Assembly (NCBI RefSeq): GCF_900215505.1
Contig: NZ_LT907844.1
Location: forward strand, 4,046,001-4,110,000
From: Cohaesibacter sp. ES.047
GTDB taxonomy: Bacteria; Pseudomonadota; Alphaproteobacteria; Rhizobiales; Cohaesibacteraceae
Length of the DNA: 64,000 nucleotides
Reading direction: 5' to 3'
The notes under the pieces are model-generated. The model ran no database searches. It had not been told where the DNA came from and saw nothing but the letters and a program-made list of their open reading frames with translations. Positions 1 through 19,982 of the stretch are shown here, one piece after another (positions within the stretch are counted from its first letter, which is position 1; each line of letters begins with the position of its first letter). A program made the position numbers and the translations under genes.

Positions 1-518
1 TTGATGTTCCTGCGAGCGGGTCGGCGGGGCGATATCTGTTCGACGCCTGGACTGCGTGGCCTTCAATGGGCGACGCAAGGGTCAATGGCCAGTTGGTGCA
101 TGGTCGGCGCGGGGATACGGATGTGGTCATCTGTGGTCTTGATGGCGCTCTGCCTACTGATGCCGAGCGTGATCAGGTGGCTGCTGCTGTCCGGCATGCC
201 TATCGGATGCCCGAGGCGGCCAGTGTGGCGGTCCTTAAAGCTACGCAACAGGCTTACGACGTTGACCTAAAGATTGTCGTTCCCGGTGTTGGTCCGGATC
301 CTGAGGTTGTCGTTGGGGAAGTGTTCGACCGCGTGCGTAAAGCTGCTCTGGCACGTGCGCTGATCGGTGGGCAGATTCCGACCGGGCTGCTGGCAGGGGC
401 CGCTTATGGCAGCAATGTACTGACTGTATTGGACAATGCTCCAGTGGTTATCGCGTCGAGTCCCTATTTGGTGCCGGTGCTTGGATCCATCACAATTAAG
501 TATGAGGTTGCAGAATGA
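1..518 (+). CDS. Baseplate assembly protein J (C-terminal part)
   Basis: The frame is open from base 3, upstream of the first ATG (66), so this is the 3' part of a gene that starts outside the window. The visible 171 residues have the Val/Gly-rich, beta-strand character of the C-terminal domain of P2 gpJ-like baseplate wedge proteins. The assignment rests mainly on context: the stop overlaps by 4 bases the start of a tail protein I gene, as J and I are coupled in P2-like phages. Its role would be to build the baseplate of a contractile tail. Confidence 0.75.
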   Translation, partial: DVPASGSAGRYLFDAWTAWPSMGDARVNGQLVHGRRGDTDVVICGLDGALPTDAERDQVAAAVRHAYRMPEAASVAVLKATQQAYDVDLKIVVPGVGPDPEVVVGEVFDRVRKAALARALIGGQIPTGLLAGAAYGSNVLTVLDNAPVVIASSPYLVPVLGSITIKYEVAE

Positions 519-1171
519 CCTCACTCCCCACGCGCACCAATGCTATGCCGTTCGAAAAAGCTATCACAGCTGGAATGTCCGATGATCTGCCGGTTGATTA
601 TGCAACTATTATGGATCCGTACCGGACACCAGCTGATTGGCTGCCGAGTTTGGCGGCGCACTATTCGGTCGATTTGTGGTTCTCTGATTGGCCGGAGGAT
701 CGCAAACGCGAGATGGTCGCGCAATGCGCTGGGCTGTCTGTCATTCATCCGGGTGAGCAGCTGGCAGAATTCAAGGGCACCTTCGAAGGTCTCAAGCGTT
801 ATCTGTGGTTTGTTGATGCTGAGATCGTCGATCGGATCGCCTATCCGTGCCGGTTCGTTCTGGGGCGGTCAAGCCCGTCCTTTACGCCTCTGCAATTCCC
901 GGCCTTCAAGGCGCGGTATCTGATCAGGGTGCTTGTTGTGCGCAAGGCGAACAGCTTTGTGCTGGGCCGTAGTGCATTGGGGCTGGCGGCGGCACGTCCG
1001 GTCGATTTGACACCCCTGCAGCGAGCCAAGAAAGCGGCACGCATTGCCAAGGCCGAACATGTCGAATATCTCGTCAATTTTTCATACAAGCGCCGCGCAA
1101 CCTTTGGGGATGCCTTGCCGCTTGATGGCTCTTACACGATCAGTCCTTTCCTTGATCGCGAACATTTGTAG
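515..1171 (+). CDS. Phage tail protein I (P2 gpI-like)
   Basis: 218 residues, starting with ATG inside the stop of the preceding J gene (ATGA overlap). The N-terminal half carries the gpI pattern: a short helix-rich start, a segment around residues 40-75 (DWLPSLAAHYSVDLW, DWPEDRKREMV), and a C-terminal region expected to contact the fibre. gpI works with gpJ at the baseplate rim. The J-I-fibre order matches P2-like tails. Confidence 0.85.
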   Translation: MTSLPTRTNAMPFEKAITAGMSDDLPVDYATIMDPYRTPADWLPSLAAHYSVDLWFSDWPEDRKREMVAQCAGLSVIHPGEQLAEFKGTFEGLKRYLWFVDAEIVDRIAYPCRFVLGRSSPSFTPLQFPAFKARYLIRVLVVRKANSFVLGRSALGLAAARPVDLTPLQRAKKAARIAKAEHVEYLVNFSYKRRATFGDALPLDGSYTISPFLDREHL

Positions 1172-1179
1172 GTTCACCC

Positions 1180-3441
1180 ATGGACATCATTAAATTCAAT
1201 GAGGCCGAGATCGTCGAGCCTGAAGACTTCACCGCGCTCAGCGAGAATGCGCGCGATGATTTCGACGAGAACGCCGCCAAGGCCCTAGGCTGGCCTGCGC
1301 ATTATAGCAGCTTCACGGTTAGTCAGGCGGCTGATGCGGACTCTGTGACCATCGGCATCGGGCGCTATTACAATGGCTCCGCGACTTATAATCATGTTGA
1401 GGCTGAGGATCTAAACCTTGAGGTCTACAAGCCTCTGGTGGCAAGCGACGGGCGATGGGTCGCCCTGCTGGCACGGGCCAATGAGGATACGATCAACAAA
1501 AACCGTCGTCTGGAGACGAGCGATGAGCCGCTCAATAGCTCAGAGCCAGTGACGCAGTCCGTTCCCAAGGTCATCACCCGAACGGCCAGCATCACCGTGC
1601 AGCTCGGCGAGATCAGCCCAACGGCGGTTAAGCCAACCATCGACGAAGATGATTGCTGCATAGCCTTTGTCTTGCTCAAGTCGACCGGCGTCGAGGATAT
1701 CGTCGCCAGCGAGGATGCACGGGTCAAATCTGTCTATGAGATCGAGATCCGCCTGCAAGCTGCAGAGGCAAATATCGCCAATATCAACAACAGTGTGACC
1801 ACCATAAAGACCGATGTTGCTGGCATCGCCCAGCAGATCGAAGATGGTCCGCCGCCCTGGCTGACGTATCAACTGGTGCGAGGGCAGGCGGAGATCCGCG
1901 AAGAGTTGGACATGCCAGACGAGGCCTTCAACTACAAGTCGGACTACGGATTGGTAAAGGATTTTTGGGATCTCGATCATCCTAATGCGAATTTTCGCAT
2001 TATGGAGGGGATCCGCTTTCCTTATGTGAATATGTCGAATGATCGCATCGAGCTGTTGGATGCAGCAAGCGATGACATCGTCATCTATGACAATAAGATT
2101 GTCATGCCTGCGCATGATCGCGTGGTGCGGTTCGAACTGCCCAAGGGCGGCAGTGAACAGAACCTTTCGAATACGACCTACTCTGTCCTGACGGCGATCG
2201 AGAAGACGGTCAGTTACGAGTCCATGCGCTATGGGGAGACCATTTCGGTCTGCTCCAACCAAGCGCAATGGCGTGCACTGCGGGGTCGGAACGTCGGCGA
2301 GTTGGTCTATATCAACGGGCAGGAATATACGATCACGAAAAAGGAAAAGCCCCATTCCGGCTATTATGGCTACAACCTGAAGCGCATCATCCGTTACACT
2401 GAGACCAAGACTTACACCGACTACATCACAACCGAGGTTGGCCTGACCGGGGCGATCTATGCGCAGACCTTCCCTTGCTCTCAATACGGGATCCTTCTGG
2501 GCGTCCAGTTGTATTTCACGCATGTGGGATCGACAGGCGATGTGACGCTCTGCCTGTGTGAGGTTCGGGTGGATGGCACGCCGGACTTTGAAAGCGTGTT
2601 GAAGACCGCGACGGTGGCTCATGTGGATCTCAGGGAGGGTTGGGTTGAGTTTGATCTGGGGGCTGTCGCGCAAGAGCCGGGCAATCGATACGGATGGTTT
2701 ACGGTCACAACCGGCAACCACTCGATTTCGATGACAACCGGAAACGCCTTTCCTGAGGGGACGAGTTTTGCCTCTACGGATGGTGTGTGGGCACAGGGCT
2801 CGAACGAGAACGATCTTTCTCATCGCCTGATCATGGCCGAGTTCAAGAACAATCGGACTGTTGTGCCGATGGAGCCGGTCAGCCTGGAGAACGGGATGAC
2901 CGAGATCCAGATGGCCTACGCTGCGGTGCAGACCGGGTCGGCTTCTCTCTCGTGGCAGGTCAAACCCGTTGGCACTGATGAGTGGATCGACATGGACGGG
3001 CGGGAAGACAATCCGCTCGCCACCAAACCGGTGCTTTGTGCCTATCAGGCGGTCCTTGTTGGCACGCCAGACAATGCGCCTTTCATCATTCTTGATGCCG
3101 ACGCGCGGATCATCTGCGGTCGGATGGGCACCGACATGGTCGCCATCACCGAGGATTACACATTCGAGGAGACCACTGACAGTGTCAGTCTTGTTGTCTA
3201 CATGGATGAGTTTGACGAGGTCCACCACACAGTCGCGCCCAAGCTGATTGTGGGTGGTTCGGTTATCGATGCGGACGCGATCGATTACAAGCCTGATCGC
3301 GAAAGCGACACCCGCGTCAAGGTGACGGCAAACTTCACGCTTGGCGCTGCCGTTACTACGCTCGCCGGGCGGATCGACGCAACGTCTGATAGCGACATCC
3401 TGTTGCCGTTCGGCGAAAGCATCCAGATCAACGCATTTTAG
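1180..3441 (+). CDS. Large tail fibre / baseplate-associated structural protein
   Basis: 753 residues. It begins 9 bases after gene I. Residues about 185-222 form a heptad-like helix (EIEIRLQAAEANIANINNS) that could trimerise. The rest looks like strings of beta-rich modules with many Gly, Thr and Asp. No enzymatic motif was recognised. Position directly after I, where P2-like phages keep fibre gene H, supports a receptor-binding or baseplate-linked structural role. The exact family is not identified. A long antisense frame inside it is considered spurious. Confidence 0.65.
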   Translation: MDIIKFNEAEIVEPEDFTALSENARDDFDENAAKALGWPAHYSSFTVSQAADADSVTIGIGRYYNGSATYNHVEAEDLNLEVYKPLVASDGRWVALLARANEDTINKNRRLETSDEPLNSSEPVTQSVPKVITRTASITVQLGEISPTAVKPTIDEDDCCIAFVLLKSTGVEDIVASEDARVKSVYEIEIRLQAAEANIANINNSVTTIKTDVAGIAQQIEDGPPPWLTYQLVRGQAEIREELDMPDEAFNYKSDYGLVKDFWDLDHPNANFRIMEGIRFPYVNMSNDRIELLDAASDDIVIYDNKIVMPAHDRVVRFELPKGGSEQNLSNTTYSVLTAIEKTVSYESMRYGETISVCSNQAQWRALRGRNVGELVYINGQEYTITKKEKPHSGYYGYNLKRIIRYTETKTYTDYITTEVGLTGAIYAQTFPCSQYGILLGVQLYFTHVGSTGDVTLCLCEVRVDGTPDFESVLKTATVAHVDLREGWVEFDLGAVAQEPGNRYGWFTVTTGNHSISMTTGNAFPEGTSFASTDGVWAQGSNENDLSHRLIMAEFKNNRTVVPMEPVSLENGMTEIQMAYAAVQTGSASLSWQVKPVGTDEWIDMDGREDNPLATKPVLCAYQAVLVGTPDNAPFIILDADARIICGRMGTDMVAITEDYTFEETTDSVSLVVYMDEFDEVHHTVAPKLIVGGSVIDADAIDYKPDRESDTRVKVTANFTLGAAVTTLAGRIDATSDSDILLPFGESIQINAF

Positions 3442-3452
3442 GAAGTATCGTC

Positions 3453-3653
3453 ATGGCTGAAACAAGCTACATCGACGAGGCGCGCTATCTGGTGCGCTTC
3501 AGCAAGAAAGTCGAGGCGGGGGTTTTTGTCTATCGCCCTCGCCAGACCAAGCTGGACATGAAAGGCTCGACGCTTAACGCGATCATCGCTCAGGGGGACG
3601 GCGACAAGATCAAAAGTGCTGAATTGATTGAAGCCAATAGCACCAAAGACTAA
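3453..3653 (+). CDS. Small phage protein between fibre genes
   Basis: 66 residues, ATG preceded by GGAAG at a normal distance, 11 bases after the large fibre gene and 11 bases before the next fibre gene. Charged, no signal peptide or membrane segment. Family not recognised. Co-directional tight packing supports a real gene, perhaps a structural adaptor or chaperone of the fibres. Confidence 0.6.
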   Translation: MAETSYIDEARYLVRFSKKVEAGVFVYRPRQTKLDMKGSTLNAIIAQGDGDKIKSAELIEANSTKD

Positions 3654-3664
3654 GGGGATCCATC

Positions 3665-4819
3665 ATGACTCTGCAGGATGCAATCAACACGGTCAATGGG
3701 ATTGACGGCGACACCCACCTTACGGGGCAACTCTATCAGGACATCTTTGGTCCGGTGTTTTCGTCGCTTCAGACCTGTCTTGACAAGGTGGCTGATTTTG
3801 AGGCGCTGGAGGCGTCTGGCGTGTCGGCGGCCCTGCAGAACATCACGGACACGATCGCGCCACAGCTGGCCAACGAACAAGCCAAACTGACAGAGCTGGT
3901 TGCCGATATCAATCTCGCCAAGGATCAATTGCTCACGATCCAGCAGGGCGGGATCTCGGCGACGAATGTGGGCATTCCGGACGGATCCGGTGTCGAGGCG
4001 GAGACACTCGATGCGGCCATATTGGAACTGTCTCAGGCGCTCGGTGCAGCAGCGGCGGCTATTGCTGATCGCTACACAAAGGAAGCGGCTGATAACCTCT
4101 TTCTAAGTCAAGAGGCTGCGGCGGATCAATATCTGGACTTTGCCAACGCCCAAGCGCTGACTGAGGCCCAGAAGGGGCAGGCACAGGCGAACATCGGGCT
4201 AGGCGGAGGCTGGAACTGGATTATCAACGGTGACTTCACGGTCAACCGGCGCGGCGGCACTCGCAATCCGGGGATAGGCGTTTATGGCTATGACCGATGG
4301 AAAGGCCATGCCGACGGCTTGGAGCAGATGATCGAAAGCCTGCCAGCCGGTGACTACACACTGACATGGACCGGTGGTGGCACGGGAACAATTGGCGGCG
4401 TGACGGCGGCAAGTCCGATCTACGTCACCGGGCTTTCTGGTGGCCAGACGTCTGTCGTTGTTCCGTCCGATGCGGCACGGGTTTCTGTCTGCAAGGGCGA
4501 CTGCCGGGCGATGACTTATGATTATGATTGTAGATCTTATCAAGCTGAAGCTGAGCTTTGCCGAAGATACTATGAAAAACTAACGGTTTTTTTCATAGGG
4601 AACGTTGTTTCGAATGGGTTTGTAGGAAGCCATGTAACATATCCAACGAAGAAAAGAGTTATACCAGCAGTCAGTGTAATGTCGGTGCTAGAGAGCCAAA
4701 ACATCGGCGCAATAAACTTTGGTCCGATCACAGATGCAAGTCTTAGGGTGTATACAAATGTACCTTCTGATGGAGATAGTTACTACTCAGCAATAGTAGA
4801 ACTGGATGCGGAGATTTAA
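3665..4819 (+). CDS. Tail fibre protein with exchangeable tip
   Basis: 384 residues. The N-terminal ~170 residues are helical, with a collagen-free shaft-like stretch. From about residue 178 the pattern WNWIINGDFTVNRRGG followed by YGYDRWKG is typical of the receptor-binding C-terminal part of many phage fibres. The last ~90 codons (about 4,540-4,818) are clearly more AT-rich than the rest of the gene, which suggests a swapped receptor-binding tip. Receptor unknown. It is followed by a DUF4376-type gene, a common fibre neighbour. Confidence 0.7.
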   Translation: MTLQDAINTVNGIDGDTHLTGQLYQDIFGPVFSSLQTCLDKVADFEALEASGVSAALQNITDTIAPQLANEQAKLTELVADINLAKDQLLTIQQGGISATNVGIPDGSGVEAETLDAAILELSQALGAAAAAIADRYTKEAADNLFLSQEAAADQYLDFANAQALTEAQKGQAQANIGLGGGWNWIINGDFTVNRRGGTRNPGIGVYGYDRWKGHADGLEQMIESLPAGDYTLTWTGGGTGTIGGVTAASPIYVTGLSGGQTSVVVPSDAARVSVCKGDCRAMTYDYDCRSYQAEAELCRRYYEKLTVFFIGNVVSNGFVGSHVTYPTKKRVIPAVSVMSVLESQNIGAINFGPITDASLRVYTNVPSDGDSYYSAIVELDAEI

Positions 4820-4822
4820 AAA

Positions 4823-5338
4823 ATGCCGGTCGAAAGTGCAAAATATCTTCAAGATGGTTCGATCAATGCGGTCATTGACGGGCGAGTTTTGACCGTGCCT
4901 GATCATCCAACCAATAGGCACCGCCAAATTCTTTCTGAATGGGAGGCTGATGGCGGTATTATTGCTCCTAATACCGCCCAAGCAACCACCGGTAATGACG
5001 TCAATGCCGAGAGGTCGCGGCGGATCGAGTCCGGGTGCAGTGTTTCTGTTACTGGCGTTGTTGATCCAATCCCTTTGCAGGGGCGTCCGCAAGATCAGAC
5101 CAATCTTTTGGGTTTGGTGACAGGCGCTCAGCTCCATATCGCTTCTGGGGACACCACGACTATTACATTTCGGGATGCCGACAACGTCGATCATGATTTG
5201 ACACCATCTCAAGTCCTTGAGCTTTGGCAGGGTGGGGCGACTTTCATCTCTGCCGTGATGCAGGCGTCTTGGGATCTCAAGGCCGCAACGCCGATCCCGT
5301 CCGACTACACCGACGACGCCTATTGGCCGGTGCCGTAG
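4823..5338 (+). CDS. DUF4376-type phage protein (fibre-associated)
   Basis: 171 residues, starting 3 bases after the fibre gene. The second half (from about residue 57, VNAERSRRIESGCSV through LTPSQVLELW) has the DUF4376 pattern, found in tail-fibre-linked or fibre-assembly proteins. Not membrane-associated. It is followed by a strong Rho-independent terminator at 5371-5401, so it ends a transcription unit. Confidence 0.65.
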   Translation: MPVESAKYLQDGSINAVIDGRVLTVPDHPTNRHRQILSEWEADGGIIAPNTAQATTGNDVNAERSRRIESGCSVSVTGVVDPIPLQGRPQDQTNLLGLVTGAQLHIASGDTTTITFRDADNVDHDLTPSQVLELWQGGATFISAVMQASWDLKAATPIPSDYTDDAYWPVP

Positions 5339-5357
5339 GTAAAACCAAACCCAAATC

Positions 5358-5400
5358 CAAAACCGAACCACCCGCCACGGCTGCCGTGAGCGGGATTTTT
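5358..5400 (+). repeat. 43-bp direct repeat, copy 1 (contains terminator)
   Basis: Bases 5358-5400 and 6261-6303 are identical over 43 bp. The repeat includes an A/C-rich leader and the terminator hairpin with its T-run. The pair exactly brackets the membrane-protein gene at 5418-6236, as expected for a cargo cassette inserted or exchanged by recombination between the repeats. Confidence 0.9.
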
Positions 5401-5401
5401 T
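5371..5401 (+). terminator. Rho-independent terminator, copy 1
   Basis: CCCGC-CACGG ... CCGTGAGCGGG hairpin (5371-5394) followed by A and six Ts. It closes the fibre operon. The same hairpin, with identical flanks, recurs at 6274-6303. Confidence 0.85.
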
Positions 5402-5417
5402 GTAAGGAATGCTTCTT

Positions 5418-6236
5418 ATGTCTAAACCAGAAGTAGACCTATCGACTCTACACGACTTTCCAACCAAGATGGAGCTGATAGCAATCCTTCATTTGCCATC
5501 GGATTGGTTCTGGTCGGATATGAAAAAAGCATACGCAAACTTGTTGGATGATCTAAGGGGCGCTGTGCTTATGTTCGGCGGCGCAGCTGGTGGCGCAGTT
5601 TTAATGAAGTATCTTTTGCCAAGCTCAGTCACCATCGGCTTAGGCTTTCTAGCTGGGGCAACGGTAGGAGCTGTGTTGACATTTCGAACAAAGTTTTCGC
5701 AAATGAAGCTATCTGGTTTGGGACTTGATCTTCAATTTAAACTGGAAGCTGTTGCCAAGGATGCTGCGCAGGCCAAGGCTTTGGCTCAGCTCTTGGCAGA
5801 GATTGCTATCGATATCGGAAATAGGTCGCGCGGCGTGCTTGGTGGCGGTTCGCTCTCTCAGAATGACCGGGTCAGAAAAATGTTGGCTGAGCGTCTCAAA
5901 GAACTCGGCTTTGACAAAAAAGAGGCATCTGATTTTGCCAAATTTGATGATCCAAATATCGCTGGCAGGATCATCCAGTCGATGGTTTTGAAGGCTGTCG
6001 AAAAAACTGAGAGGCTCGAAAAAGAACAATTTAATCAACTGGTGTTGCATTTGCTTGGCAAGGATGCCCCGCGCGAGCCTGACGCAATTGCAGAAGCACT
6101 TGGACCAGACTTGTTGAAAGATACAACGGTCAAAGCTGCTGTTGACTTTTATCGGCAGTGGCATGCCGATGAGGCAAAGCTCTACTTTGTTGTCAATAAC
6201 CTTGGCCGTTTTCATGAGGCTGAGAAGACCGAGTAA
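5418..6236 (+). CDS. Predicted membrane cargo (moron) protein of unknown function
   Basis: 272 residues from ATG 5418, chosen because AAGGA (5404-5408) lies 9 bases upstream; the ATG at 5409 is too close to it. Residues about 45-80 form two hydrophobic helices rich in Gly/Ala (LMFGGAAGGAVLMKYLL and IGLGFLAGATVGAVLTF). The remaining ~190 residues are a soluble, mostly helical domain. No family recognised. It lies between fibre and sheath genes, where P2-like phages carry no required gene, is AT-richer than its neighbours, and is flanked by duplicated terminators. A lysogenic-conversion role such as superinfection exclusion or anti-phage defence is an inference from context only. Confidence 0.75.
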   Translation: MSKPEVDLSTLHDFPTKMELIAILHLPSDWFWSDMKKAYANLLDDLRGAVLMFGGAAGGAVLMKYLLPSSVTIGLGFLAGATVGAVLTFRTKFSQMKLSGLGLDLQFKLEAVAKDAAQAKALAQLLAEIAIDIGNRSRGVLGGGSLSQNDRVRKMLAERLKELGFDKKEASDFAKFDDPNIAGRIIQSMVLKAVEKTERLEKEQFNQLVLHLLGKDAPREPDAIAEALGPDLLKDTTVKAAVDFYRQWHADEAKLYFVVNNLGRFHEAEKTE

Positions 6237-6260
6237 ACGCCGGATAGTCAATCCCACAAT

Positions 6261-6303
6261 CAAAACCGAACCACCCGCCACGGCTGCCGTGAGCGGGATT
6301 TTT
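6261..6303 (+). repeat. 43-bp direct repeat, copy 2 (contains terminator)
   Basis: Identical to 5358-5400; right boundary of the putative cargo cassette. Confidence 0.9.
6274..6303 (+). terminator. Rho-independent terminator, copy 2
   Basis: Same hairpin as at 5371-5394, followed by A and five Ts. It ends the transcript of the membrane-protein gene and separates it from the sheath operon. Confidence 0.85.
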
Positions 6304-6358
6304 AATGATGGTCGCTCTCGCGCATTGCGGTGCAATGAGCTGACGCTGGCTATCGATT

Positions 6359-6381
6359 TCGGCGCATTCGCGCCTTGTCTT
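6359..6381 (+). promoter_or_regulatory. Conserved 23-bp leader hairpin, copy 1 (before tail sheath)
   Basis: A 23-bp segment with a GGCGC-ATTC-GCGCC hairpin and TTGTCTT tail sits 15 bases before the sheath ATG. The same 23 bp lie just before the holin gene at 17694-17716, in both cases followed by a short spacer and the start codon. It could be a terminator-like attenuator, a late-gene regulatory element or an RNA-processing site; which one cannot be told from sequence. Confidence 0.55.
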
Positions 6382-6396
6382 TTATGAGGTAACCCA

Positions 6397-7665
6397 ATGG
6401 GAAAACCAACTGTAGGCGCGACGGCCATTTATGACACCAGCCAGACGGTTCAGATCGTCAAAGATATGGACATGTCCATTCCGGGTGTTCTGGGCACTTC
6501 GCCAAACAAGGCGAGCGGTGTTGAATATAACCGCTGTTACACCGTCTCCACTGCTGACCGCGATTTGCTTGAGAGGTTTGGTGAGGGTGATGTCCTTGAT
6601 CAAATCCAAAGCATCGCTGCCGGTCTGACCGAGGATGTTTCTGCCACCAATGTGACGGTTGTCATTGCGCCGGAAAGTGAAAACGCCGACGAGGCGACAA
6701 AGCATGCCGAGACCATTGCCAATCTGGCGGGGTCATCAGCTGATGGCTCTGGCGCCTACGCCTTCACGATGGCAGCAGCGCACCGCGCCAAGACGGCCCG
6801 CATCAAGACCATTGCTGGTCTCTATGATGCGGACGTTACCAATGGGGCCAATCTCATCATCAACAACCTCGACGAGGTCAACGCCTTCGATTTTGGCTTC
6901 ACCTTTGTCAACGGCACCAACACTGACGAGACGGACGCGCTTGCGGCACGTGCGCTTTATGACATGGTCAACGCTCACATGATCGAGACCCATGTCCTCG
7001 ACGTGGATAGTTCTGGCAATCCCGTGACGCGCGGCGCGTCCGGCTATATTGCCGGACTCCAGATTGGCGTTGACTTCAAGCATGACGGCGTCCCCAGTCA
7101 TGTGGCTGGAGGGCGTACCATCAGGTGTTCAGGACCGGCTCGCGAAATCGCCTACAATGATTTCAGCGACGCCTGCGAAGGCCAGCGCCTGCTTGCGCAG
7201 GGCCTCGGCATCCTAACGCTTGGCAACGGCCTTGATGACAACGCCACCGGCGATGGCGGCACCATGTATCGCGGTGCGCATTCCATGTCGAATGACAGCC
7301 AGCTGAAATTTTACAACAAAGCGCGCATGAAAAGCTATGTGTTGCTGACGTTGGCCCGCTATTACGCTGAGCACAATCTGATCAACAACACCGACTATGC
7401 GGTGTTCAAAAACATGATCACCGGTGCCCAGGGTTGGCTGAATGAGCTGGCAGATGAGCGGCATATCTACACCGCTCCGCATATCGATTTCATCCCGAAT
7501 AGCGGGTCGGTTGATGACTGGCGCGAGGGCGTTCTCAAGCTGTCTGGTGGTGTGGAATTCCGCTCGCCACTGATGCGCACAGATCAGGCCCTCGCGCCGG
7601 ATATCGCTGGCATCGAAATCGAGATCGCTCAGCTTGAAGCTTTCGCTAAAAACTTGACCGCATAA
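6397..7665 (+). CDS. Contractile tail sheath protein (P2 FI-like)
   Basis: 422 residues, about the size of P2-type sheath subunits (~390-400). It has the N-terminal strand plus insertion domain and a C-terminal region (FKNMITGAQGWLNELADER, then GVEFRSPLMRTDQALAPDI) typical of sheath proteins, which polymerise around the tube and contract on infection. SD GAGGT lies just upstream of the ATG. It starts the sheath-tube-E operon. Confidence 0.9.
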   Translation: MGKPTVGATAIYDTSQTVQIVKDMDMSIPGVLGTSPNKASGVEYNRCYTVSTADRDLLERFGEGDVLDQIQSIAAGLTEDVSATNVTVVIAPESENADEATKHAETIANLAGSSADGSGAYAFTMAAAHRAKTARIKTIAGLYDADVTNGANLIINNLDEVNAFDFGFTFVNGTNTDETDALAARALYDMVNAHMIETHVLDVDSSGNPVTRGASGYIAGLQIGVDFKHDGVPSHVAGGRTIRCSGPAREIAYNDFSDACEGQRLLAQGLGILTLGNGLDDNATGDGGTMYRGAHSMSNDSQLKFYNKARMKSYVLLTLARYYAEHNLINNTDYAVFKNMITGAQGWLNELADERHIYTAPHIDFIPNSGSVDDWREGVLKLSGGVEFRSPLMRTDQALAPDIAGIEIEIAQLEAFAKNLTA

Positions 7666-7675
7666 GGAGCGCCTG

Positions 7676-8191
7676 ATGGCCTACCATGATATCAAGACCT
7701 TGCAGGATGTTTCCGCACTTTGCGATTTATTTCCTGATGAGGTCATCCGCCTCGAGATTGCAGAACTTGGCCTGCCTAATCTTGAGGCTGATTTCGAGGA
7801 TTTCGAAAGCGCCGGCATGTCCGGGCATACGTTGCAAATCGGGACCGGTCGGCTGCAGGCCGTAGAGCCAACGCTCAAGCTGGTCGGCAATCTTGACCAG
7901 CTGTATAAGGCATTTCTGACCGCCGCCAACTGGACCATCAATGGGGTGGTGGTCAACGCCAACACCGGTGAAAAAACGGGCTACAAAATGACCTATAAAG
8001 GTCAGTTGGCCAAAATCTCGCCAGAGGCGAGGAGCGGCAAAAGCCTGCATCATCACGAATATGCATTCCGGGGTGTCATGTCTTATGCGATCTCATCGAA
8101 TGGCCAGCAGCTTTACGCCTGGACTGTCAAGGGCGGCATGAAGATCGCAGGTGTTGACGTGGATGCCGAAAATCGGGCAATCCTCGGATAA
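7676..8191 (+). CDS. Major tail tube protein (P2 FII-like)
   Basis: 171 residues, matching the tube protein family in length. Visible features: acidic N-terminal segment, EPTLKLVGNLDQLYKAF, and a beta-rich C-terminus with GGMKIAGVDVDAENRAILG. Forms the inner tube. It begins 10 bases after the sheath gene. Confidence 0.9.
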   Translation: MAYHDIKTLQDVSALCDLFPDEVIRLEIAELGLPNLEADFEDFESAGMSGHTLQIGTGRLQAVEPTLKLVGNLDQLYKAFLTAANWTINGVVVNANTGEKTGYKMTYKGQLAKISPEARSGKSLHHHEYAFRGVMSYAISSNGQQLYAWTVKGGMKIAGVDVDAENRAILG

Positions 8192-8202
8192 GGGAACTAT
8201 TC

Positions 8203-8685
8203 ATGTCAAATGAAATGAAAACAGCAACAACCAAGGATAAGATCCTTGATCTACTGGAGGGCGGTGACGCCTTCCTCTCTCTCCCAGACCTTGAGGCCAT
8301 CAAGCTGGTGCTCGACAGCAGGATTGACCAGCTCAAGCCGGAGCCAAAGGTTGAGGACTATTGGAAAGAGACCGAGGTGCCAATCGACTTTGAGTGGGTC
8401 GTCGACGGCAAGGTCGTTAAATCGGTCAAGCTCAAGACGCCAACTGGTCGCGAAAGCAGCTGGTTTGCCACTCAGCTCATTGTCGATGAAGGTGGCCGGG
8501 CTGTTGTTTCTGGTGAAAAGACCCTTATAGATTTGCGTGCGGAATGTGCGGTCAAGATCAGCGGATACTCGCTCGATCAGATCTATGATCTGCAAGGGCC
8601 TGATTTCGACCGGGTGTGCGAGGCGGCGTTTAATTTTTTTACAGATCCAGCCGAGCTGATGATCTGGCAGGGCGTGACGACCTGA
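8203..8685 (+). CDS. Tail assembly chaperone E (zero-frame product)
   Basis: 160 residues, 11 bases after the tube gene, the place of P2 gene E. Contains YSLDQIYDLQGPDFDRVCEAAFNFF near the C-terminus. The zero-frame product ends at TGA 8683-8685. A T7 slippery run just before the end allows an extended E-E' product. It is expected to chaperone the tape-measure protein during tail assembly. Confidence 0.85.
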   Translation: MSNEMKTATTKDKILDLLEGGDAFLSLPDLEAIKLVLDSRIDQLKPEPKVEDYWKETEVPIDFEWVVDGKVVKSVKLKTPTGRESSWFATQLIVDEGGRAVVSGEKTLIDLRAECAVKISGYSLDQIYDLQGPDFDRVCEAAFNFFTDPAELMIWQGVTT

Positions 8686-8828
8686 TTGCAACCGTCGCCG
8701 GGATCTTCCCGATGATGTTCACCTATGACCAGTATGATGCGTTGACCATGCAAGAGCTTTTTGCGTGGTCACGCCGCGCTGAGAATGCGCTGGAGCTTCG
8801 GGCTGTTTTGGCAGGCGCAAAAGGTTAA
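8203..8828 (+). CDS. E-E' frameshift product (GpE-type tail chaperone extension)
   Basis: After -1 slippage on the T7 run (join 8203-8640 with 8640-8828) the predicted fusion is 208 residues. The extension reads YRSSRADDLAGRDDLIATVA, continues IFPMMFTYDQYDALTMQELF and ends AWSRRAENALELRAVLAGAKG. The hydrophobic-W/F-MSLxEL-like pattern plus WxRRA resembles the GpE (E') family. The E' frame has no convincing ribosome site of its own, so expression through the slip is the simplest reading, as known for P2 and many tailed phages. Confidence 0.8.
8634..8640 (+). other. -1 ribosomal frameshift slippery heptamer T TTT TTT
   Basis: Seven Ts in the exact phase X XXY YYZ for the E frame (codons TTT 8635-8637 and TTT 8638-8640). 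A one-base back-slip re-pairs both codons perfectly and enters the E' frame, which stays open to TAA at 8826-8828. Confidence 0.8.
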
Positions 8829-8961
8829 TTGTTCAGACAGACCAGATAGGCCAGACCAAGAGACACGAAAAACCCAACCAATCCACGCAGGGTTGTCAGC
8901 AGGCGTTTTGTGTGGTTGTAATTCAGATACCGCAAGCGCTCGAAGGGGAATCGGGTCTGTT

Positions 8962-9474
8962 ATGCACAAAATCGTACTGACACTTTTGTTGGCAATTTGG
9001 TCAAACCCATCTTATGCAGGTTGGGAATTTTTGATTGACGAAGATCCTTTTGAGGACACTAAGATCGCGGCCGCAATGGCGGCTTCTGACTTCAATCAAT
9101 CAGAACTTGTATTCAAGTGTTGGCAAGGGATTCCAAGTGCGACTTTGATGGGCATTTCCATTGCAAATGAACCTGACATCGAGGGCTTGCTAGATACCAA
9201 AGGTATTTCTATCGATACAAGGGTGGATAAGGGAAAGGTAAGATCCTTCAAACTATCTGCCCAGTTTTTCAAGGGAAACACGATGCTGTTGACTCTCCGA
9301 GCTGGAAGTGACAGCAACCTTTTCTATTTTTTCAAAGATGTAGGGGCGGCAAAAAAGACGATAGCCATACGTTTGCGAGAGCGAATTCACACCTTCCCAG
9401 TAGAAGGCAGTACGGTTGCGATCAGGGAAATGATAAACACCTGCGAAATGCCACCTCCACCTCCTGAGAAATAG
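8962..9474 (+). CDS. Secreted phage-cargo protein of unknown function
   Basis: 170 residues from ATG 8962, with AAGGGGA 12 bases upstream. The start is set by a clear signal peptide (MHKIVLTLLLAIWSNPSYA, predicted cleavage before GWEF); an upstream in-frame extension is rejected because it would bury this signal. The mature part has two cysteines (VFKCW near the N-terminus, NTCEM near the end) that could pair, and a beta-rich core ending FPVEGSTVAIREMINTC. This layout vaguely recalls VasI/TagO-like periplasmic proteins, but no family can be claimed. A secreted protein between E' and the antirepressor module is cargo, not tail structure. Confidence 0.7.
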   Translation: MHKIVLTLLLAIWSNPSYAGWEFLIDEDPFEDTKIAAAMAASDFNQSELVFKCWQGIPSATLMGISIANEPDIEGLLDTKGISIDTRVDKGKVRSFKLSAQFFKGNTMLLTLRAGSDSNLFYFFKDVGAAKKTIAIRLRERIHTFPVEGSTVAIREMINTCEMPPPPPEK

Positions 9475-9482
9475 TCAGGGAC

Positions 9483-9511
9483 TTGACAGCCGCTCAGGGT
9501 TGCAACATACT
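9483..9511 (+). promoter_or_regulatory. Sigma70-type promoter of the C4-like RNA/antirepressor module
   Basis: TTGACA (9483-9488, perfect -35), 17-bp spacer, CATACT (9506-9511). Transcription would start near 9518 and run through the antisense-RNA region into the 79-residue ORF and antirepressor. A separate promoter here fits an immunity module that is not late-regulated. Confidence 0.65.
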
Positions 9512-9520
9512 CAAAAATGA

Positions 9521-9544
9521 GGCGTAGAAACCTTTACAAAGCGG
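9521..9544 (+). repeat. Imperfect direct repeat, copy 1 (antisense target-like)
   Basis: The 24-base segment 9521-9544 matches 9728-9751 at 20 of 24 positions. Both contain GAAAC and TACAAAG blocks complementary to the C4-like segment 9668-9686. Confidence 0.75.
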
Positions 9545-9574
9545 ATACCGCACCCGTCAGTCAGCGGTATTTTT
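9545..9574 (+). terminator. Attenuator-like terminator in the C4-like leader
   Basis: Perfect 7-bp stem ATACCGC (9545-9551) / GCGGTAT (9564-9570), followed by four Ts. Located just after the promoter; it may separate a short leader RNA from full-length transcription. Confidence 0.6.
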
Positions 9575-9710
9575 GTGCCCATTTTCTGCTTTTGGCAGCT
9601 TCTCGTGTGATTCTATGGGCGGGAGGGCGGTGAATAGAATACCCTTCGGGGGAATAAGCCCGCCTGACTTTGTACAGGTTTCTAACCTCCCGCTCACCAG
9701 CGGGTCTTAG
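9575..9710 (+). ncRNA. C4-like antisense RNA
   Basis: The segment resembles the C4 antisense RNA of P1/P7 and its relatives upstream of ash/icd/ant genes: a CTGC-TTTT-GGCAG hairpin, ATTCTAT...ATAGAAT and GGGCGG...CCGCC pairings, the stretch TACAGGTTTCTAACC, then the hairpin CCCGCT-CACC-AGCGGG (9689-9704). Bases 9668-9685 are complementary at 16 of 18 positions to 9524-9541 and more weakly to 9731-9748, next to the ribosome site of the following ORF. That is the C4 layout, in which the processed RNA blocks translation of the antirepressor operon. Ends are approximate. Confidence 0.65.
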
Positions 9711-9727
9711 AATGCGCGCTGGTGAGT

Positions 9728-9751
9728 GGCGTTGAAACGCTTACAAAGAGG
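9728..9751 (+). repeat. Imperfect direct repeat, copy 2, overlapping the ribosome site
   Basis: Partner of 9521-9544. Its right end carries AAAGAGG, the SD of the ORF starting at 9760, so pairing with the C4-like RNA would cover the ribosome site. Confidence 0.7.
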
Positions 9752-9759
9752 CTTTCGCC

Positions 9760-9999
9760 ATGACCCCGAGACTGGTCGCAGACCCTAAACCTGAAGATAT
9801 TTTCACATCCATGGAATCGGCATTCGTTGATTTCGAACAGTATCTTGATGTGCTGTTCGATGCCTGTTGCGACATGCCGCCCAATGCGCCCGCCAACAAG
9901 GTCGCCACCGCCATGCAAATGGCGATGAATGATCGGTTGCGCCTGGCGCGACAGCAGCTGGATCACTTCAAAACTGAAGGCCGGAGGATGGCGTCATGA
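9760..9999 (+). CDS. Small ORF preceding the antirepressor (icd-like position)
   Basis: 79 residues, SD AGAGG upstream. Mostly helical (FTSMESAFVDFEQYLDVLF, then KVATAMQMAMNDRLRLARQQ). It overlaps the antirepressor start by 4 bases (ATGA), so the two are translationally coupled, as icd and ant are in P1. No sequence similarity to Icd is claimed; the comparison is positional. It is the likely direct target of the C4-like RNA. Confidence 0.65.
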   Translation: MTPRLVADPKPEDIFTSMESAFVDFEQYLDVLFDACCDMPPNAPANKVATAMQMAMNDRLRLARQQLDHFKTEGRRMAS

Positions 10000-10862
10000 A
10001 CGAGATGACCACATTTGATTTCAACGGAAATGCCTTGCGCACGTTCGAGAAGGATGGTGAGCATTGCTTTGTTGCGAGAGATGTCTGCGATTGTCTGGAA
10101 ATTCAAGACGCAGAAGTAGCTGTGCGGAAGCTGGATGACGACGAAAGAGGTACGTGTTTAATACGGACTCCTGTTACCAAGAACATGATATACGTAACAG
10201 AATCAGGACTTTACACGTTAACACTGCGTAGCCGAAAGGCAGTGACGCCGGGGACGCCACAACACCGTTTTCGCAAATGGGTGACCGGTGAAGTGCTGCC
10301 GAGTCTCAGAAAGACCGGGTCTTATGCTCCGGCGCCCGAGCCGGTGATTGCCGTGCCGGTCAATGCGGACAGGGCTTTGCTCAACAATGAGATGAACGCC
10401 AGAGCTGCGATGATCCGGGAATGTCGCACAACCTTTGGGCGCGAGGCGGCGATGTCCTTGTGGCCCATGCTCGGCCTGCCGGATGTGGCACGGGACGGGG
10501 TGAATGAGCTGGCCGGAACGGCGCGCGATGACGGGGAGGGATGCTTGAAGCATCTCCTCAACCAAAGCGCTGGTGGCGGTATGACGGTCAAACAAGTGCT
10601 GTCCAACGCCTTGCATGACCGGACAACGAACGGCGCGCACCGGGTCGGGTGCAAGGTGGATGTTCCGAGGCGGCAGTCTTGCATCGCTATCTCCAACACA
10701 CACCCCTTTTTGTCGGGTGTGTTTGAGGGAACGCAGTGGGCTGGCAACTGGCGGGATGCCTTATTGTCCCTTGATGGGGCGTGCAGATCCGGTAACCCGA
10801 TGAAATTTGGCAAGCGACCCTCGCGTGCGGTGATCATCCCCCAGCGGCATATCGACTGGTAA
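9996..10862 (+). CDS. BRO-family phage antirepressor
   Basis: 288 residues. The N-terminal ~110 residues show the BRO-N pattern: TFDFNGNALRTFEKDGEHCFVARDVCD, a central YVTESGLYTLTLRSRKA and FRKWVTGEVLPSLRKTGSY. BRO-N proteins bind DNA or oppose phage repressors. The C-terminal ~170 residues are a separate domain I do not recognise. Together with the upstream promoter and C4-like RNA this makes an RNA-controlled antirepressor operon. Oddly, it sits between tail genes E/E' and the tape measure. Confidence 0.8.
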   Translation: MNEMTTFDFNGNALRTFEKDGEHCFVARDVCDCLEIQDAEVAVRKLDDDERGTCLIRTPVTKNMIYVTESGLYTLTLRSRKAVTPGTPQHRFRKWVTGEVLPSLRKTGSYAPAPEPVIAVPVNADRALLNNEMNARAAMIRECRTTFGREAAMSLWPMLGLPDVARDGVNELAGTARDDGEGCLKHLLNQSAGGGMTVKQVLSNALHDRTTNGAHRVGCKVDVPRRQSCIAISNTHPFLSGVFEGTQWAGNWRDALLSLDGACRSGNPMKFGKRPSRAVIIPQRHIDW

Positions 10863-15371: not shown

Positions 15372-15386
15372 GTTCTTATTTTGTTC
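15372..15386 (+). promoter_or_regulatory. Alphaproteobacterial-type LexA (SOS) box GTTC-N7-GTTC
   Basis: GTTC (15372-15375), seven bases, GTTC (15383-15386), exactly the direct-repeat operator known for LexA in alphaproteobacteria. It lies 64 bases upstream of the zinc-ribbon gene at 15450, with candidate promoter elements TTGTGC (15387) and TACATT (15411) next to it. Suggests DNA-damage induction of the following gene(s). Confidence 0.65.
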
Positions 15387-15449
15387 TTGTGCTGGTTGAC
15401 AAAACGGGCATACATTCGGATCCGGTTGCTCAAGCGGGTCTGATGGCTA

Positions 15450-15701
15450 ATGGAAAAATCTGAAGAGTGGGAAACTGTAATCCTGGGGCCGCGATGGCAG
15501 GTACGGGTGCGGGACTTTTTGCCCGGCATATGGTTGCGTCTCAAGTGCCCGTGCGGGCATGAGGCTGTGGTCAGCACCGAGCGGATGCATGCCCACCATC
15601 CGCCGTATATGCGGTTGAAGGAAATTGAATACAAGTTTCGTTGCCGTGCCTGTGGTGACAACAAGGAAATCATGTGGAGCGCTGTGAAGCTGATCAGTTG
15701 A
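15450..15701 (+). CDS. Small zinc-ribbon protein, probably SOS-regulated
   Basis: 83 residues with two cysteine pairs, CPCGH (around residue 33) and CRACG (around residue 65), the spacing of a zinc ribbon. A likely nucleic-acid or protein-binding regulator. It follows an exact GTTC-N7-GTTC LexA operator. No close family recognised. Located after the tail genes and before the toxin pair. Confidence 0.7.
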   Translation: MEKSEEWETVILGPRWQVRVRDFLPGIWLRLKCPCGHEAVVSTERMHAHHPPYMRLKEIEYKFRCRACGDNKEIMWSAVKLIS

Positions 15702-15748
15702 GATCTTGTAAGTGGTTAGATAAGCAACAATGTGCTAGAAAAGCGGGT

Positions 15749-16309
15749 ATGGATATGGATGTAAGCATTGATCACGCTCTTTTGGAGGCTGCTGCGCTTC
15801 AGCGCATAGGCGATCCACCAGCAATCATACGCCCGTTTTTTGATGCCGACGCTGGATTTGCTGCAATGAAGGAATCCAATCAGAAACAGATTGCGAGTTT
15901 ACGGGCGTCTCTCGATAAATATGAACGAGACGGGCAAATGATACTACATAGCTTGGATACCGCTTTCTCAGAACACGAGTTGTCTGGTCAGCATATCTCC
16001 TCGCTGAATCGACTCGTTGAGATTATTGAAGATCGTGCTGATAAATATGTAGCTTTGTATCGAAAATCCCAAAAGGAAGTCAGCACTCTTGTGAAGGAAT
16101 GTAGAAGACTTTCTCCTGCGCATGCATCGGACTTAAAGGCGGATTTTGATGTTGTTTTGGGTCTTTACAAGCGCGAGATTGATGTGATCCTGATTTATGC
16201 TGATGGTGTCAGGTTTTTACGTGGTAAACATGATCCAACCAACAAGGTCATCGCGAAAACGAATTCACCTCAGGATACGGTCTCTTTTCTAGAGGCGTTG
16301 ATGGATTAG
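15749..16309 (+). CDS. Helical protein paired with a RelE/ParE-like toxin (candidate antitoxin)
   Basis: 186 residues from ATG 15749 (MDMDVSIDH); a longer in-frame start at 15674 would overlap the zinc-ribbon gene and lacks a ribosome site. The protein is almost all helix: a charged coiled-coil core (MKESNQKQIASLRASLDKYE; SLNRLVEIIEDRADKYVALY) with no recognisable ribbon-helix-helix or HTH domain. Its stop overlaps the toxin start by one base (TAGTG), the coupling seen in toxin-antitoxin operons. It is far larger than ordinary RelB/ParD antitoxins. The antitoxin role is inferred from coupling only. Confidence 0.6.
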   Translation: MDMDVSIDHALLEAAALQRIGDPPAIIRPFFDADAGFAAMKESNQKQIASLRASLDKYERDGQMILHSLDTAFSEHELSGQHISSLNRLVEIIEDRADKYVALYRKSQKEVSTLVKECRRLSPAHASDLKADFDVVLGLYKREIDVILIYADGVRFLRGKHDPTNKVIAKTNSPQDTVSFLEALMD

Positions 16310-16587
16310 TGACTTGCGAGATCGAGTATACCGAACAGTTTGTCAGTGCATTTAAAAAGCTTTCGCAACAGCAGCAAAAGCGACTGACAGAGACGGTCAA
16401 AAAGCTAAGTACCGATCCCGACCATCCCGGTTTGCGTAGGCACAAGTTCAAAGGCCTGCGCGATTGTTGGACCATTCGTTCAGGCCGAAGCGACAGATTG
16501 GTCATTCTCCAAATTCATCAAACAAGATTTAGACTGCTCGATGTTGGCCCGCATGATGCGGTATACCGACGACTAAATCGAAGTTAG
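16309..16587 (+). CDS. RelE/ParE-superfamily toxin-like protein
   Basis: 92 residues with a GTG start inside the upstream stop. Features of the fold: N-terminal helices (YTEQFVSAFKKLSQQQQKRL), then GLRRHKFKGLRDCWTIRSGRSDRLVILQI and a C-terminal strand FRLLDVGPHDAVYRRL. The basic cluster plus final DVGPHDAVY is the pattern of YafQ/HigB-type mRNA interferases. Could instead act on gyrase as ParE does; sequence alone does not decide. Confidence 0.75.
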   Translation: MTCEIEYTEQFVSAFKKLSQQQQKRLTETVKKLSTDPDHPGLRRHKFKGLRDCWTIRSGRSDRLVILQIHQTRFRLLDVGPHDAVYRRLNRS

Positions 16588-16604
16588 TCTTTTTGCGAAC
16601 GCAA

Positions 16605-16811
16605 TCAGTTGAGCAGTGTCGGGGTATCTTCTGGGCGCGGCAACATAGCTGATCCGGCTTCCTGCTGGGTCTCTGCCTCTTGTTTTGCCATTGCCAGTAG
16701 ATAGTTCACGACGGCGGCATTTGTGTTGCCTTCGGTGAGGAGCAGCGCGCGGTTGATCAGGGTGATGACCTTGAACCACGGATCCTCTGGATTGGTCGGC
16801 TGATCGGTCAT
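16605..16811 (-). CDS. Small leftward protein of unknown function
   Basis: 68 residues, ATG with AAGGGG about 8 bases upstream on the minus strand. Pattern DPWFKVITLINRALLLTEGN, then AVVNYLLAMAKQEAE, suggests a small helical protein. It is the only leftward gene inside the late region and is convergent with the toxin gene. Confidence 0.5.
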   Translation of the reverse strand: MTDQPTNPEDPWFKVITLINRALLLTEGNTNAAVVNYLLAMAKQEAETQQEAGSAMLPRPEDTPTLLN

Positions 16812-16907
16812 TCGAATGCCCCTTTTGGTTTTACCCGTAGACTTTGCTACCGCAATTGCTGCTGATTGGCAATGGCGGCGCTTTCCCTACATTGTTGGAG
16901 GTGATCC

Positions 16908-17117
16908 ATGATCACGCTGGCGTTTTATCGCGGGCGAGGGTGGCTGCGTGCTGTTCTCGCCCGATTGCTTTCGTGTGGCTCTAGTTACATTCCGCCACCC
17001 GCCCCATCACGTGAAGAATTCGCCAGAGCGCATAGGCGCGCCTGCGGTGTGGCTGCAATTTCTACAATCCCAACAGTAAAAGCAAAGCCGAAAGGAAAAA
17101 GCCATGATGAGCTTTGA
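16908..17117 (+). CDS. Short protein with near-perfect Shine-Dalgarno; possible truncated gene
   Basis: 69 residues. GGAGGTGAT (16897-16905) is almost the full anti-SD complement, 6 bases before the ATG, so translation is likely. The N-terminus (MITLAFYRGRGWLRAVLARL) recalls the start of phage NlpC/P60-like or related hydrolases, but what follows is Pro/Ala-rich without catalytic residues. It overlaps the M15 peptidase start by 14 bases and may now serve mainly for translational coupling. Confidence 0.5.
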   Translation: MITLAFYRGRGWLRAVLARLLSCGSSYIPPPAPSREEFARAHRRACGVAAISTIPTVKAKPKGKSHDEL

Positions 17118-17544
17118 ACAATTCTTCGCGGGGTTTGGTTTCTCATACTTCACCGCTTCGGAGGCGTTTTTCAAGGGTGATGCTCATGTCAATCCGCAAC
17201 ATCCCGGCTTTGGTCTCAACACCGACCCTCCGCCCGAGCTTTGGTGGAACATTATCAAGACGGTTGAGCAGCTGGAATGGCTGCGGCGCGACATTGGCGA
17301 GCCGATCCGGATCGTCAGCGCTTATCGGTCACCGGCCTACAATGCTGTGATTAGCAAAGCAGCTGCCAGCCAACACATGGAATTCACGGCGCTTGATTTC
17401 ACTGCCGCGACCCGATCCCCGAAATATTGCTATGACCGCCTGATGTGGCGGCGTGACAGAGGCGCGTTCAGTGGCGGGATAGGGCTGTACGACACATTCG
17501 TTCACATCGACACGCGCGGCGTGGATGCCGACTGGCACGGCTAA
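17104..17544 (+). CDS. Peptidase M15-type endolysin
   Basis: 146 residues, SD AAGGAAAA before ATG 17104. Zinc-site pattern of the M15_3 family: SQHMEFTALDF (H and D ligands) and FVHIDTRG (HxD). Preceded by SAYRSPAYNAVI, the usual substrate-loop motif. It should cut peptide bonds in peptidoglycan at lysis. No signal peptide, so it depends on the holin encoded next. Confidence 0.88.
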   Translation: MMSFEQFFAGFGFSYFTASEAFFKGDAHVNPQHPGFGLNTDPPPELWWNIIKTVEQLEWLRRDIGEPIRIVSAYRSPAYNAVISKAAASQHMEFTALDFTAATRSPKYCYDRLMWRRDRGAFSGGIGLYDTFVHIDTRGVDADWHG

Positions 17545-17601
17545 GCACCTCAATTCCGTAAACCTCAAAATCACATCACCCTAACGCTCTCGTTATTTCC
17601 G

Positions 17602-17696
17602 CTGCGCGGAATTAACTGGCGCGGAATTAACTGGCGCGTGCTTACGGCGTCGCCGCTGTTGCGGCTTGCCTTGACTGGCGCGTGCTTGCGCCGTCG
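17602..17696 (+). repeat. Short tandem GC-rich repeats upstream of the holin gene
   Basis: Two tandem units of about 15 bases (17602-17615, 17616-17630) ending GGAATTAA, then two related 22-base units beginning CTGGCGCGTGCTT (17631-17652, 17675-17696). They fill the gap between endolysin and holin and lead into the conserved leader hairpin. Confidence 0.6.
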
Positions 17697-17716
17697 GCGC
17701 ATTCGCGCCTTGTCTT
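17694..17716 (+). promoter_or_regulatory. Conserved 23-bp leader hairpin, copy 2 (before holin)
   Basis: Identical over 23 bp to 6359-6381, including hairpin GGCGC-ATTC-GCGCC and TTGTCTT; followed by TATAGGAG and the holin ATG at 17730. Confidence 0.55.
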
Positions 17717-17729
17717 ATAGGAGTTACCC

Positions 17730-18530: not shown

Positions 18531-18675
18531 GGCCGACGATCTAAAACACCGTGCGGATGCAGAGCAGCGCGCCCGCGAGGCAGAAGGGAGGGCGGCAGAT
18601 GCAGCGCTGGATAATCCTGGTCCTGATGGCCCAGATGGCATTGTTGACCGCCTGCGCCGGGAGGGTCACCTCTGA
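18442..18675 (+). CDS. Candidate inner-membrane spanin (Rz-like)
   Basis: 77 residues beginning inside the holin gene in another frame, GGAG upstream. N-terminal membrane-like segment (LKLVLTFALRLLMAGLDQW), then a highly charged helix (KADRADDLKHRADAEQRARE). This is the layout of an i-spanin, and its 3' part overlaps the lipoprotein gene at 18599 as Rz/Rz1 do. Short for a spanin; assignment from architecture. Confidence 0.55.
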   Translation: MSTLKLVLTFALRLLMAGLDQWILRRKADRADDLKHRADAEQRAREAEGRAADAALDNPGPDGPDGIVDRLRREGHL

Positions 18676-19971: not shown

Positions 19972-19982
19972 TGTTGACTGTG

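What the first reader, a model, noticed from the sequence alone, without database searches (positions are those of the whole stretch)
5358..6303. Cargo gene boxed by two identical 43-bp terminator repeats between fibre and sheath genes
The membrane-protein gene at 5418-6236 is bracketed by exact copies of a terminator-containing repeat, giving it an isolated transcription unit and a ready recombination site for gain, loss or exchange. Its place between fibre and sheath genes holds no required P2-like gene, it is AT-richer than its neighbours, and it joins two hydrophobic helices to a large helical domain of unknown family. This is the signature of a phage moron; exclusion or defence is a reasonable guess.
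Basis: partly seen in the sequence, partly recalled or inferred. Interest (0 to 1): 0.78.

Follow-up and report, generated by a model that had tools for sequence, protein, structure and literature searches.

The report
Prophage cargo gene between duplicated terminators
A dormant virus in a bacterium of the genus Cohaesibacter carries one extra membrane-protein gene, slotted between its tail-fibre and tail-sheath genes and fenced by two identical stop signals for transcription; related viruses lack it, so it is probably an optional passenger, perhaps one that protects the host cell from other viruses.

Summary
An exact 43-bp repeat (5358-5400, 6261-6303), each copy an intrinsic-terminator hairpin, brackets a 272-codon gene for a protein with two likely membrane helices and a helical C-terminal part. 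The host genus is Cohaesibacter; the prophage has a P2-type tail and the gene lies between fibre-assembly and sheath genes. None of 18 loci found by sheath similarity has the gene or such a repeat. The closest (sheath 89%) has one hairpin of this kind and no gene, and its flanks match the outer flanks of the two copies here. So the gene is an insertion that doubled the terminator: a moron at the site that holds fun(Z) in P2 and cargo in 10 of 13 other P2-like enterobacterial phage records read (7 distinct cargoes). A second prophage in the genome shares the gene within a 5.3-kb, 99.7% identical block with the fibre module, although its sheath is only 26% identical: the cargo moved with the fibre genes, not as a cassette swapped between the terminators. 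'Isolated transcription unit' is half right: no promoter was found, and 17 nt separate the first repeat from the start codon. The protein is an orphan; defence or exclusion is plausible from site and shape but untested.

The parts
5358..5400 (+). Terminator repeat copy 1 (T1), in the position of the ancestral terminator after the fibre-assembly gene
   Evidence: Exact 43-nt repeat; hairpin with T tail, -17.7 kcal/mol, z -2.9; its left flank matches the empty site of relative G009
5404..5417 (+). Cargo leader: AAGGA (5404-5408) as candidate ribosome site, 9 nt before the ATG; no room for a promoter after T1
   Evidence: Sequence, by eye; no + strand sigma-70-like site in 4500-7000
5418..6236 (+). 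Cargo gene, 272 aa: hydrophobic region 46-91 read as two helices (the second holds a G-x3-G-x3-G run at 76-84) and a helical C-terminal part
   Evidence: low-confidence all-helical models; no credible family match; GC3 47.6%
6261..6303 (+). Terminator repeat copy 2 (T2), downstream of the cargo; its right flank matches the ancestral sheath-side flank
6304..6396 (+). 93-nt gap between T2 and the sheath; holds one copy of a repeat also found before the 17730 gene; would have room for a sheath-operon promoter, as pJ in phage 186
   Evidence: phage 186 annotation
4823..5338 (+). Fibre-assembly-type gene (DUF4376), in the position of P2 gene G
   Evidence: Pfam PF14301, E 1.1e-20; position against P2
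6397..7665 (+). Tail sheath gene (in the position of P2 FI)
   Evidence: No direct profile match, but 26% identical to the second prophage's sheath, which matches phrog_23 tail sheath at 5.3e-36; tube FII follows (PF04985)
1000..6321 (+). Block 99.7% identical to the second prophage of the same genome: end of gene I, fibre genes, assembly gene, T1, cargo, T2
   Evidence: 16 mismatches in 1001-6200; about 71% identity over 1-1000; first mismatch after the block at 6322

Best explanation
The gene is a moron: optional lysogenic cargo that entered the ancestral fibre/sheath gap of a P2-type tail gene cluster together with a second copy of the terminator that already stood there. SHOWN: exact duplicate terminators, an empty site with one hairpin of this kind in the closest relative, absence from all 18 relatives found, low GC, and presence in two prophages inside one shared fibre-plus-cargo block. 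INFERRED: the first terminator still ends the fibre transcript; the second keeps cargo transcripts out of the sheath operon; the protein is anchored in the inner membrane by a helical hairpin with a helical domain in the cytoplasm; and it serves the lysogen by hindering infection by other phages (entry block or membrane-level abortive response). Insertion is highly likely, the membrane anchor likely, the anti-phage role about 0.4.
For: T1 and T2 identical over 43 nt and 53/56 columns over the 55-nt segments, against 41-45 of 59-60 columns to six genus relatives. Empty site in G009 (sheath 89%): left of its hairpin as T1, right of it (AATGATGGTCGCT) as T2. 0 of 18 relatives have an exact repeat over 18 nt in the stretch read before the sheath, and 0 of 18 have the protein by tblastn at E 0.01 in the stretches held. 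GC 47.5%. Same site as P2 fun(Z), recorded as 'blocks growth of T5; nonessential; lysogenic conversion'; cargo in 10 of 13 other P2-like enterobacterial records read, fibre-inversion genes in 1 (Cartapus), empty in 2 (186, PSP3); the 10 form 7 distinct cargoes. PMC9519451 section 8 describes a second defence-enriched locus of P2-like phages holding fun and three of that paper's systems.
Against: No promoter found; 17 nt between T1 and the ATG, so expression in the lysogen is unproven. No recognisable family and no homologue found outside this genome, so the defence reading rests on site and shape alone; nor does it resemble the 14 P2-like records held. In the Cohaesibacter and order-level relatives the gap is empty or nearly so, so it is not visibly a cargo hotspot in this lineage. 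Both structure models are poor (mean pLDDT 50 and 62).
Confidence: 0.6

Rival explanations
1. The gene is a late-expressed accessory of virion assembly, adsorption or lysis, read through T1 from the fibre operon, and linked to the fibre type it travels with.
For: Same orientation as the tail genes; no promoter found and 17 nt from T1 to the ATG; in 13 of 18 relatives the sheath itself starts only 16-55 nt after a T-tailed hairpin (here the cargo ATG is 24 nt after the T1 stem), so read-through or overlapping promoters may be normal in these phages; the gene is shared together with the fibre block.
Against: Absent from 18 of 18 relatives with recognisable sheaths, including G009 with an 89% identical sheath and an assembly protein 88% identical over 117 columns; AT-rich; likely membrane helices; no PHROG family.
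Confidence: 0.17
2. The gene is a superinfection-exclusion protein tied to the receptor that the neighbouring fibre uses, so fibre and exclusion gene are kept together as one exchange unit.
For: The fibre module, assembly gene and cargo are shared as one 99.7% block by two prophages whose sheaths are 26% identical and whose head regions share no DNA match by blastn; likely membrane helices.
Against: Only one exchange event is seen, and adjacency alone would give it; no other fibre-plus-cargo pair was found at this site in the 18 relatives; the receptor is unknown.
Confidence: 0.18
3. The insertion is a recent neutral hitchhiker without function, not yet lost.
For: Known only from this genome; no promoter found.
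Against: Intact open frame in both prophages with a plausible ribosome site; 3 base differences, 2 of them amino-acid changing (G143G, S145L, A223T), too few to judge selection.
Confidence: 0.1

Closest known systems
Phage P2 fun(Z) (AF063097)
   Same: Nonessential low-GC cargo between fibre-assembly gene G and sheath FI, directly after the annotated V-operon terminator
   Different: fun(Z) is antisense and longer (1587 bp); no exact repeat of 12 nt or more within its gap; no protein similarity by tblastn
Other cargo at the G-FI gap of Peduovirus coliphages (12W, AC1, SIDE7, SIAC10, 10W, 4C9, pro147, 12474III, 9W, 720R8)
   Same: Same site; low GC (gaps 37-46% against 57-59% in the 1000 nt after the sheath start); 7 distinct cargoes in 10 records, in either orientation
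   Different: No exact repeat over 13 nt within any of these 10 gaps; annotated products differ (NUDIX, HAD hydrolase, metal-binding, ubiquitin-conjugating-type fragment, hypothetical)
Phage 186 / PSP3 empty site
   Same: In 186 a single annotated terminator t45 stands between the fibre-assembly gene and the sheath, followed by late promoter pJ; corresponds to the empty site of the relatives here
   Different: No cargo
Lambdoid morons (recalled from the literature, not read here)
   Same: Extra gene between genes that are adjacent in relatives, different GC, own terminator
   Different: Classical morons have their own promoter; none was found here

Membership tests
Moron (prophage cargo gene) | Lies between two genes that are adjacent in related phages | tested here: met
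   G009, G008 and G004 have the assembly-gene homologue directly followed by hairpin and sheath; G014, G005 and G016 have the same type of hairpin and no extra gene in the gap, their last fibre-region ORF not identified by profile. 12 order-level loci from 10 genomes have no homologue and by eye no cargo-sized gap, though G601 ends its fibre region with two unidentified 95-96-aa ORFs
Moron (prophage cargo gene) | Base composition unlike the neighbours | tested here: met
   GC 47.5%, GC3 47.6%, against 52.6-57.8% GC in the nine tail genes from 66 to 8685; other prophage genes are also low (U 49.7%, ORF 8761-9474 47.3%)
Moron (prophage cargo gene) | Own terminator | tested here: met
   T2 at 6261-6303; termination itself not measured
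Moron (prophage cargo gene) | Own promoter, expressed in the lysogen | tested here: inconclusive
   No + strand sigma-70-like site in 4500-7000; host promoters may differ from that consensus; no expression data
Moron (prophage cargo gene) | Not required for phage growth | not testable with these tools
   Absence in relatives implies it; needs a deletion
P2 G-FI cargo site (fun(Z)) | Position between the fibre-assembly gene and the sheath of a P2-type tail | tested here: met
   Tail_P2_I, DUF4376 assembly-type protein, FII tube and GpU profiles in P2 order; P2 map
Anti-phage defence or superinfection-exclusion protein | Match to a known defence family | tested here: not met
   PADLOC 0 families; Pfam, PHROGs and NCBIfam no credible match
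Anti-phage defence or superinfection-exclusion protein | Blocks phage growth when expressed | not testable with these tools
   Plating test needed

The most novel reading that the evidence does not exclude
Doubling of an intrinsic terminator is the mark and the means of cargo entry here: a gene followed by a like terminator recombined into the single terminator of the fibre/sheath gap, giving an insulated slot. The fibre module and its cargo then travel as one unit between phages with unrelated tail bodies, keeping receptor choice and a matched exclusion protein of a new family together.
Probability: 0.15. Interest if true: 0.6.

Novelty: new member of a known kind. Interest (0 to 1): 0.38.

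Why it matters
It shows cargo at the P2 fun(Z) site in an alphaproteobacterial prophage and gives an unusually clean before/after picture of a moron insertion: one hairpin of this kind and no gene in the closest relative, two identical terminators and a gene here. It also shows cargo and fibre genes shared as one block between prophages with different tails. If the protein excludes phages it would found a new family; if not, it is an ordinary moron.

Tried and rejected
Homologues: four weak hits in the class search (E 0.006-0.01) were read and rejected; by eye their frames are a histidine kinase, two topoisomerase I genes and an unrelated 587-aa frame (names are my reading, not profile results). 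The UViG hit is the second prophage of the same genome (100% over 12,816 nt), not an independent find. The sheath query found nothing in viral contigs by pattern scan or in phage records. PDB sequences gave one chance match at E 0.88. The structures are too poor to interpret; Foldseek on the C-terminal model gave no match at E <= 0.001, the best rows being long helical bundles. The third gene-G-like stretch of the genome (C1:3459062) is not followed by a sheath (by eye). Rfam: no match in 5200-6500. P2's own gap has only a 17-nt, 88% direct repeat.

Against a simple 'single terminator' rule: by the finder a T-tailed hairpin ends within 143 nt of the inferred sheath start in 14 of 18 relatives (16-55 nt in 13 of them); in 2 more (G545a, G504) it lies just before the ORF start and the sheath start is uncertain; 2 (G601, G458b) have none near. 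G009 and G584 show a second, different hairpin in the gap.

The absence of the protein in the 12 order-level loci and of shared head DNA had been judged by eye and were then tested.

Papers: PMC9519451 section 8 read whole plus passages; PMC9122126 passages only (no occurrence of fun, sheath or tail fiber in its main text); all others seen only as search listings. I make no claim that this is not in print.

Full report
WHAT IS THERE. The finding's coordinates hold. A 43-nt exact repeat lies at 5358-5400 and 6261-6303; the copies are alike over 55 nt (93%). Among exact direct repeats at distances up to 5 kb it is the only one over 20 nt in the window. Each copy folds into a 10-pair stem with a bulged A and a T tail. 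Between them, gene 5418-6236 encodes 272 aa with a hydrophobic region at 46-91 that I read as two helices; the second holds a G-x3-G-x3-G run at 76-84. Its GC is 47.5% against 52.6-57.8% in the nine tail genes from 66 to 8685.

WHERE IT IS. The host genus is Cohaesibacter: in a search with the window's methionyl-tRNA-synthetase-type protein (name by eye) six Cohaesibacter loci among the 80 kept of 123 are 83-88% identical, and the next organism is 64%. Read by eye, the ORFs upstream of the window suggest a lambda-type head. Profiles show a P2-type tail: Tail_P2_I, DUF4376 assembly-type protein, FII tube, GpU, tape measure and a D-type tail protein. The sheath at 6397-7665 has no direct profile match; it is assigned through its 26% identity to the second prophage's sheath, which matches phrog_23. 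A tRNA-Ser at 22124-22211 stands beside an integrase-type ORF at 20672-22033 (name by eye).

THE EMPTY SITE. Sheath relatives were found in 6 of the other 19 genomes of the family search and at 12 further loci in 10 genomes of the order search (297 genomes searched). None of these 18 loci has the cargo protein by tblastn at E 0.01 in the stretch held, 3.1-20 kb each. In G009 (sheath 89%) the assembly gene is followed by one hairpin of this kind and then the sheath; the sequence left of its hairpin matches the left side of T1, and the sequence right of it (AATGATGGTCGCT) matches the right side of T2. T1 and T2 share 53 of 56 columns with each other but only 41-45 of 59-60 with the six genus relatives, so they are copies of one another rather than two old terminators. 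No relative has an exact direct repeat over 18 nt in the 1.5 kb before its sheath (0.5 and 0.9 kb for two cut loci). A T-tailed hairpin in front of the sheath is itself found in 16 of 18, two of those with an uncertain sheath start.

THE SECOND COPY. A second prophage in the same chromosome carries the gene 99% identical and both repeats at the same spacing. The two prophages differ at 16 positions in 1001-6200 (99.7%); over 1-1000 they are about 71% identical; after 6322 they part, the sheaths being only 26% identical. A second shared stretch, 15372-20011 at 95%, lies on the lysis side. The 26 kb upstream of the window has no blastn match to the second prophage's stretch except 248 nt at 66% near the baseplate genes. 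So the last exchange took the fibre module, assembly gene, T1, cargo and T2 as one block; its right edge lies just past T2, and its left edge inside gene I. This does not show recombination between T1 and T2.

COMPARISON WITH KNOWN PHAGES. In P2 the same gap holds fun(Z) on the opposite strand, just after the V-operon terminator. I read 13 further P2-like enterobacterial records: 10 have cargo, which by blastn of the gaps fall into 7 distinct kinds (12W, AC1 and SIDE7 share one; 10W and 4C9 share one); Cartapus has fibre and invertase genes there; 186 and PSP3 are empty. Phage 186 shows a single annotated terminator t45 followed by late promoter pJ. Gaps of P2 and the ten Peduovirus records are 35-46% GC against 57-59% after the sheath start; none of the 14 gaps has an exact repeat over 13 nt. 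PMC9519451, section 8, reports a second defence-enriched locus of P2-like phages that contains fun and three of that paper's systems; that this is the G-FI gap follows from the position of fun(Z).

TRANSCRIPTION. T1 ends 17 nt before the ATG. The scan found no sigma-70-like site on the + strand in 4500-7000. In 13 of 18 relatives the sheath starts 16-55 nt after its hairpin stem, so such hairpins may be leaky or overlap promoters in these phages. The claim of an isolated transcription unit is therefore supported only for the 3' side.

FUNCTION. The protein has no credible match in Pfam, PHROGs, PADLOC or NCBIfam or in PDB sequences, none in phage or plasmid records by tblastn, and no credible homologue in 20 family, 385 class and 398 phylum genomes (the sets overlap and hold the window's own genome) or in the pattern scans (the latter only refinding the second prophage). 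Models are all-helical but of low confidence. I take an inner-membrane protein serving the lysogen, most likely against other phages, as the best guess at about 0.4; insertion as cargo is well supported.

VERDICT. Real, correctly seen, and mostly correctly read: a moron at a known P2 cargo site, with an unusually clean terminator duplication. Function unproven.

Noticed in passing
window 8761-10862: A second cargo-like site between tail genes E and T: an AT-rich (47% GC) ORF 8761-9474 and a Bro-N gene 9996-10862 (PF02498). By eye, relative G009 has nothing there, and G008 has a different small antisense ORF and its own Bro-like gene.
   Followed up: partly
window 6336-6394, 17627-17670, 17671-17729: Repeat around TCGGCGCATTCGCGCCTTGTC just before the sheath gene and before the 17730 gene. 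Its core has five hits in the genome: two in each prophage and one at C1:4752935, 8 kb beyond the stretch fetched and possibly still in the second prophage. Possible late-promoter or leader element.
   Followed up: partly
window 5404-5414; L034 8980-8990 (-): AAGGAATGCTT of the cargo leader recurs in relative G008 between the assembly gene and its terminator, there inside a 9-bp palindrome; may be a trace of former cargo or a shared leader.
   Followed up: partly
window 15372-20011: The lysis-side module is also shared with the second prophage at 95%, so the two prophages share two blocks while their sheaths are only 26% identical and their head regions show no DNA match.
   Followed up: partly
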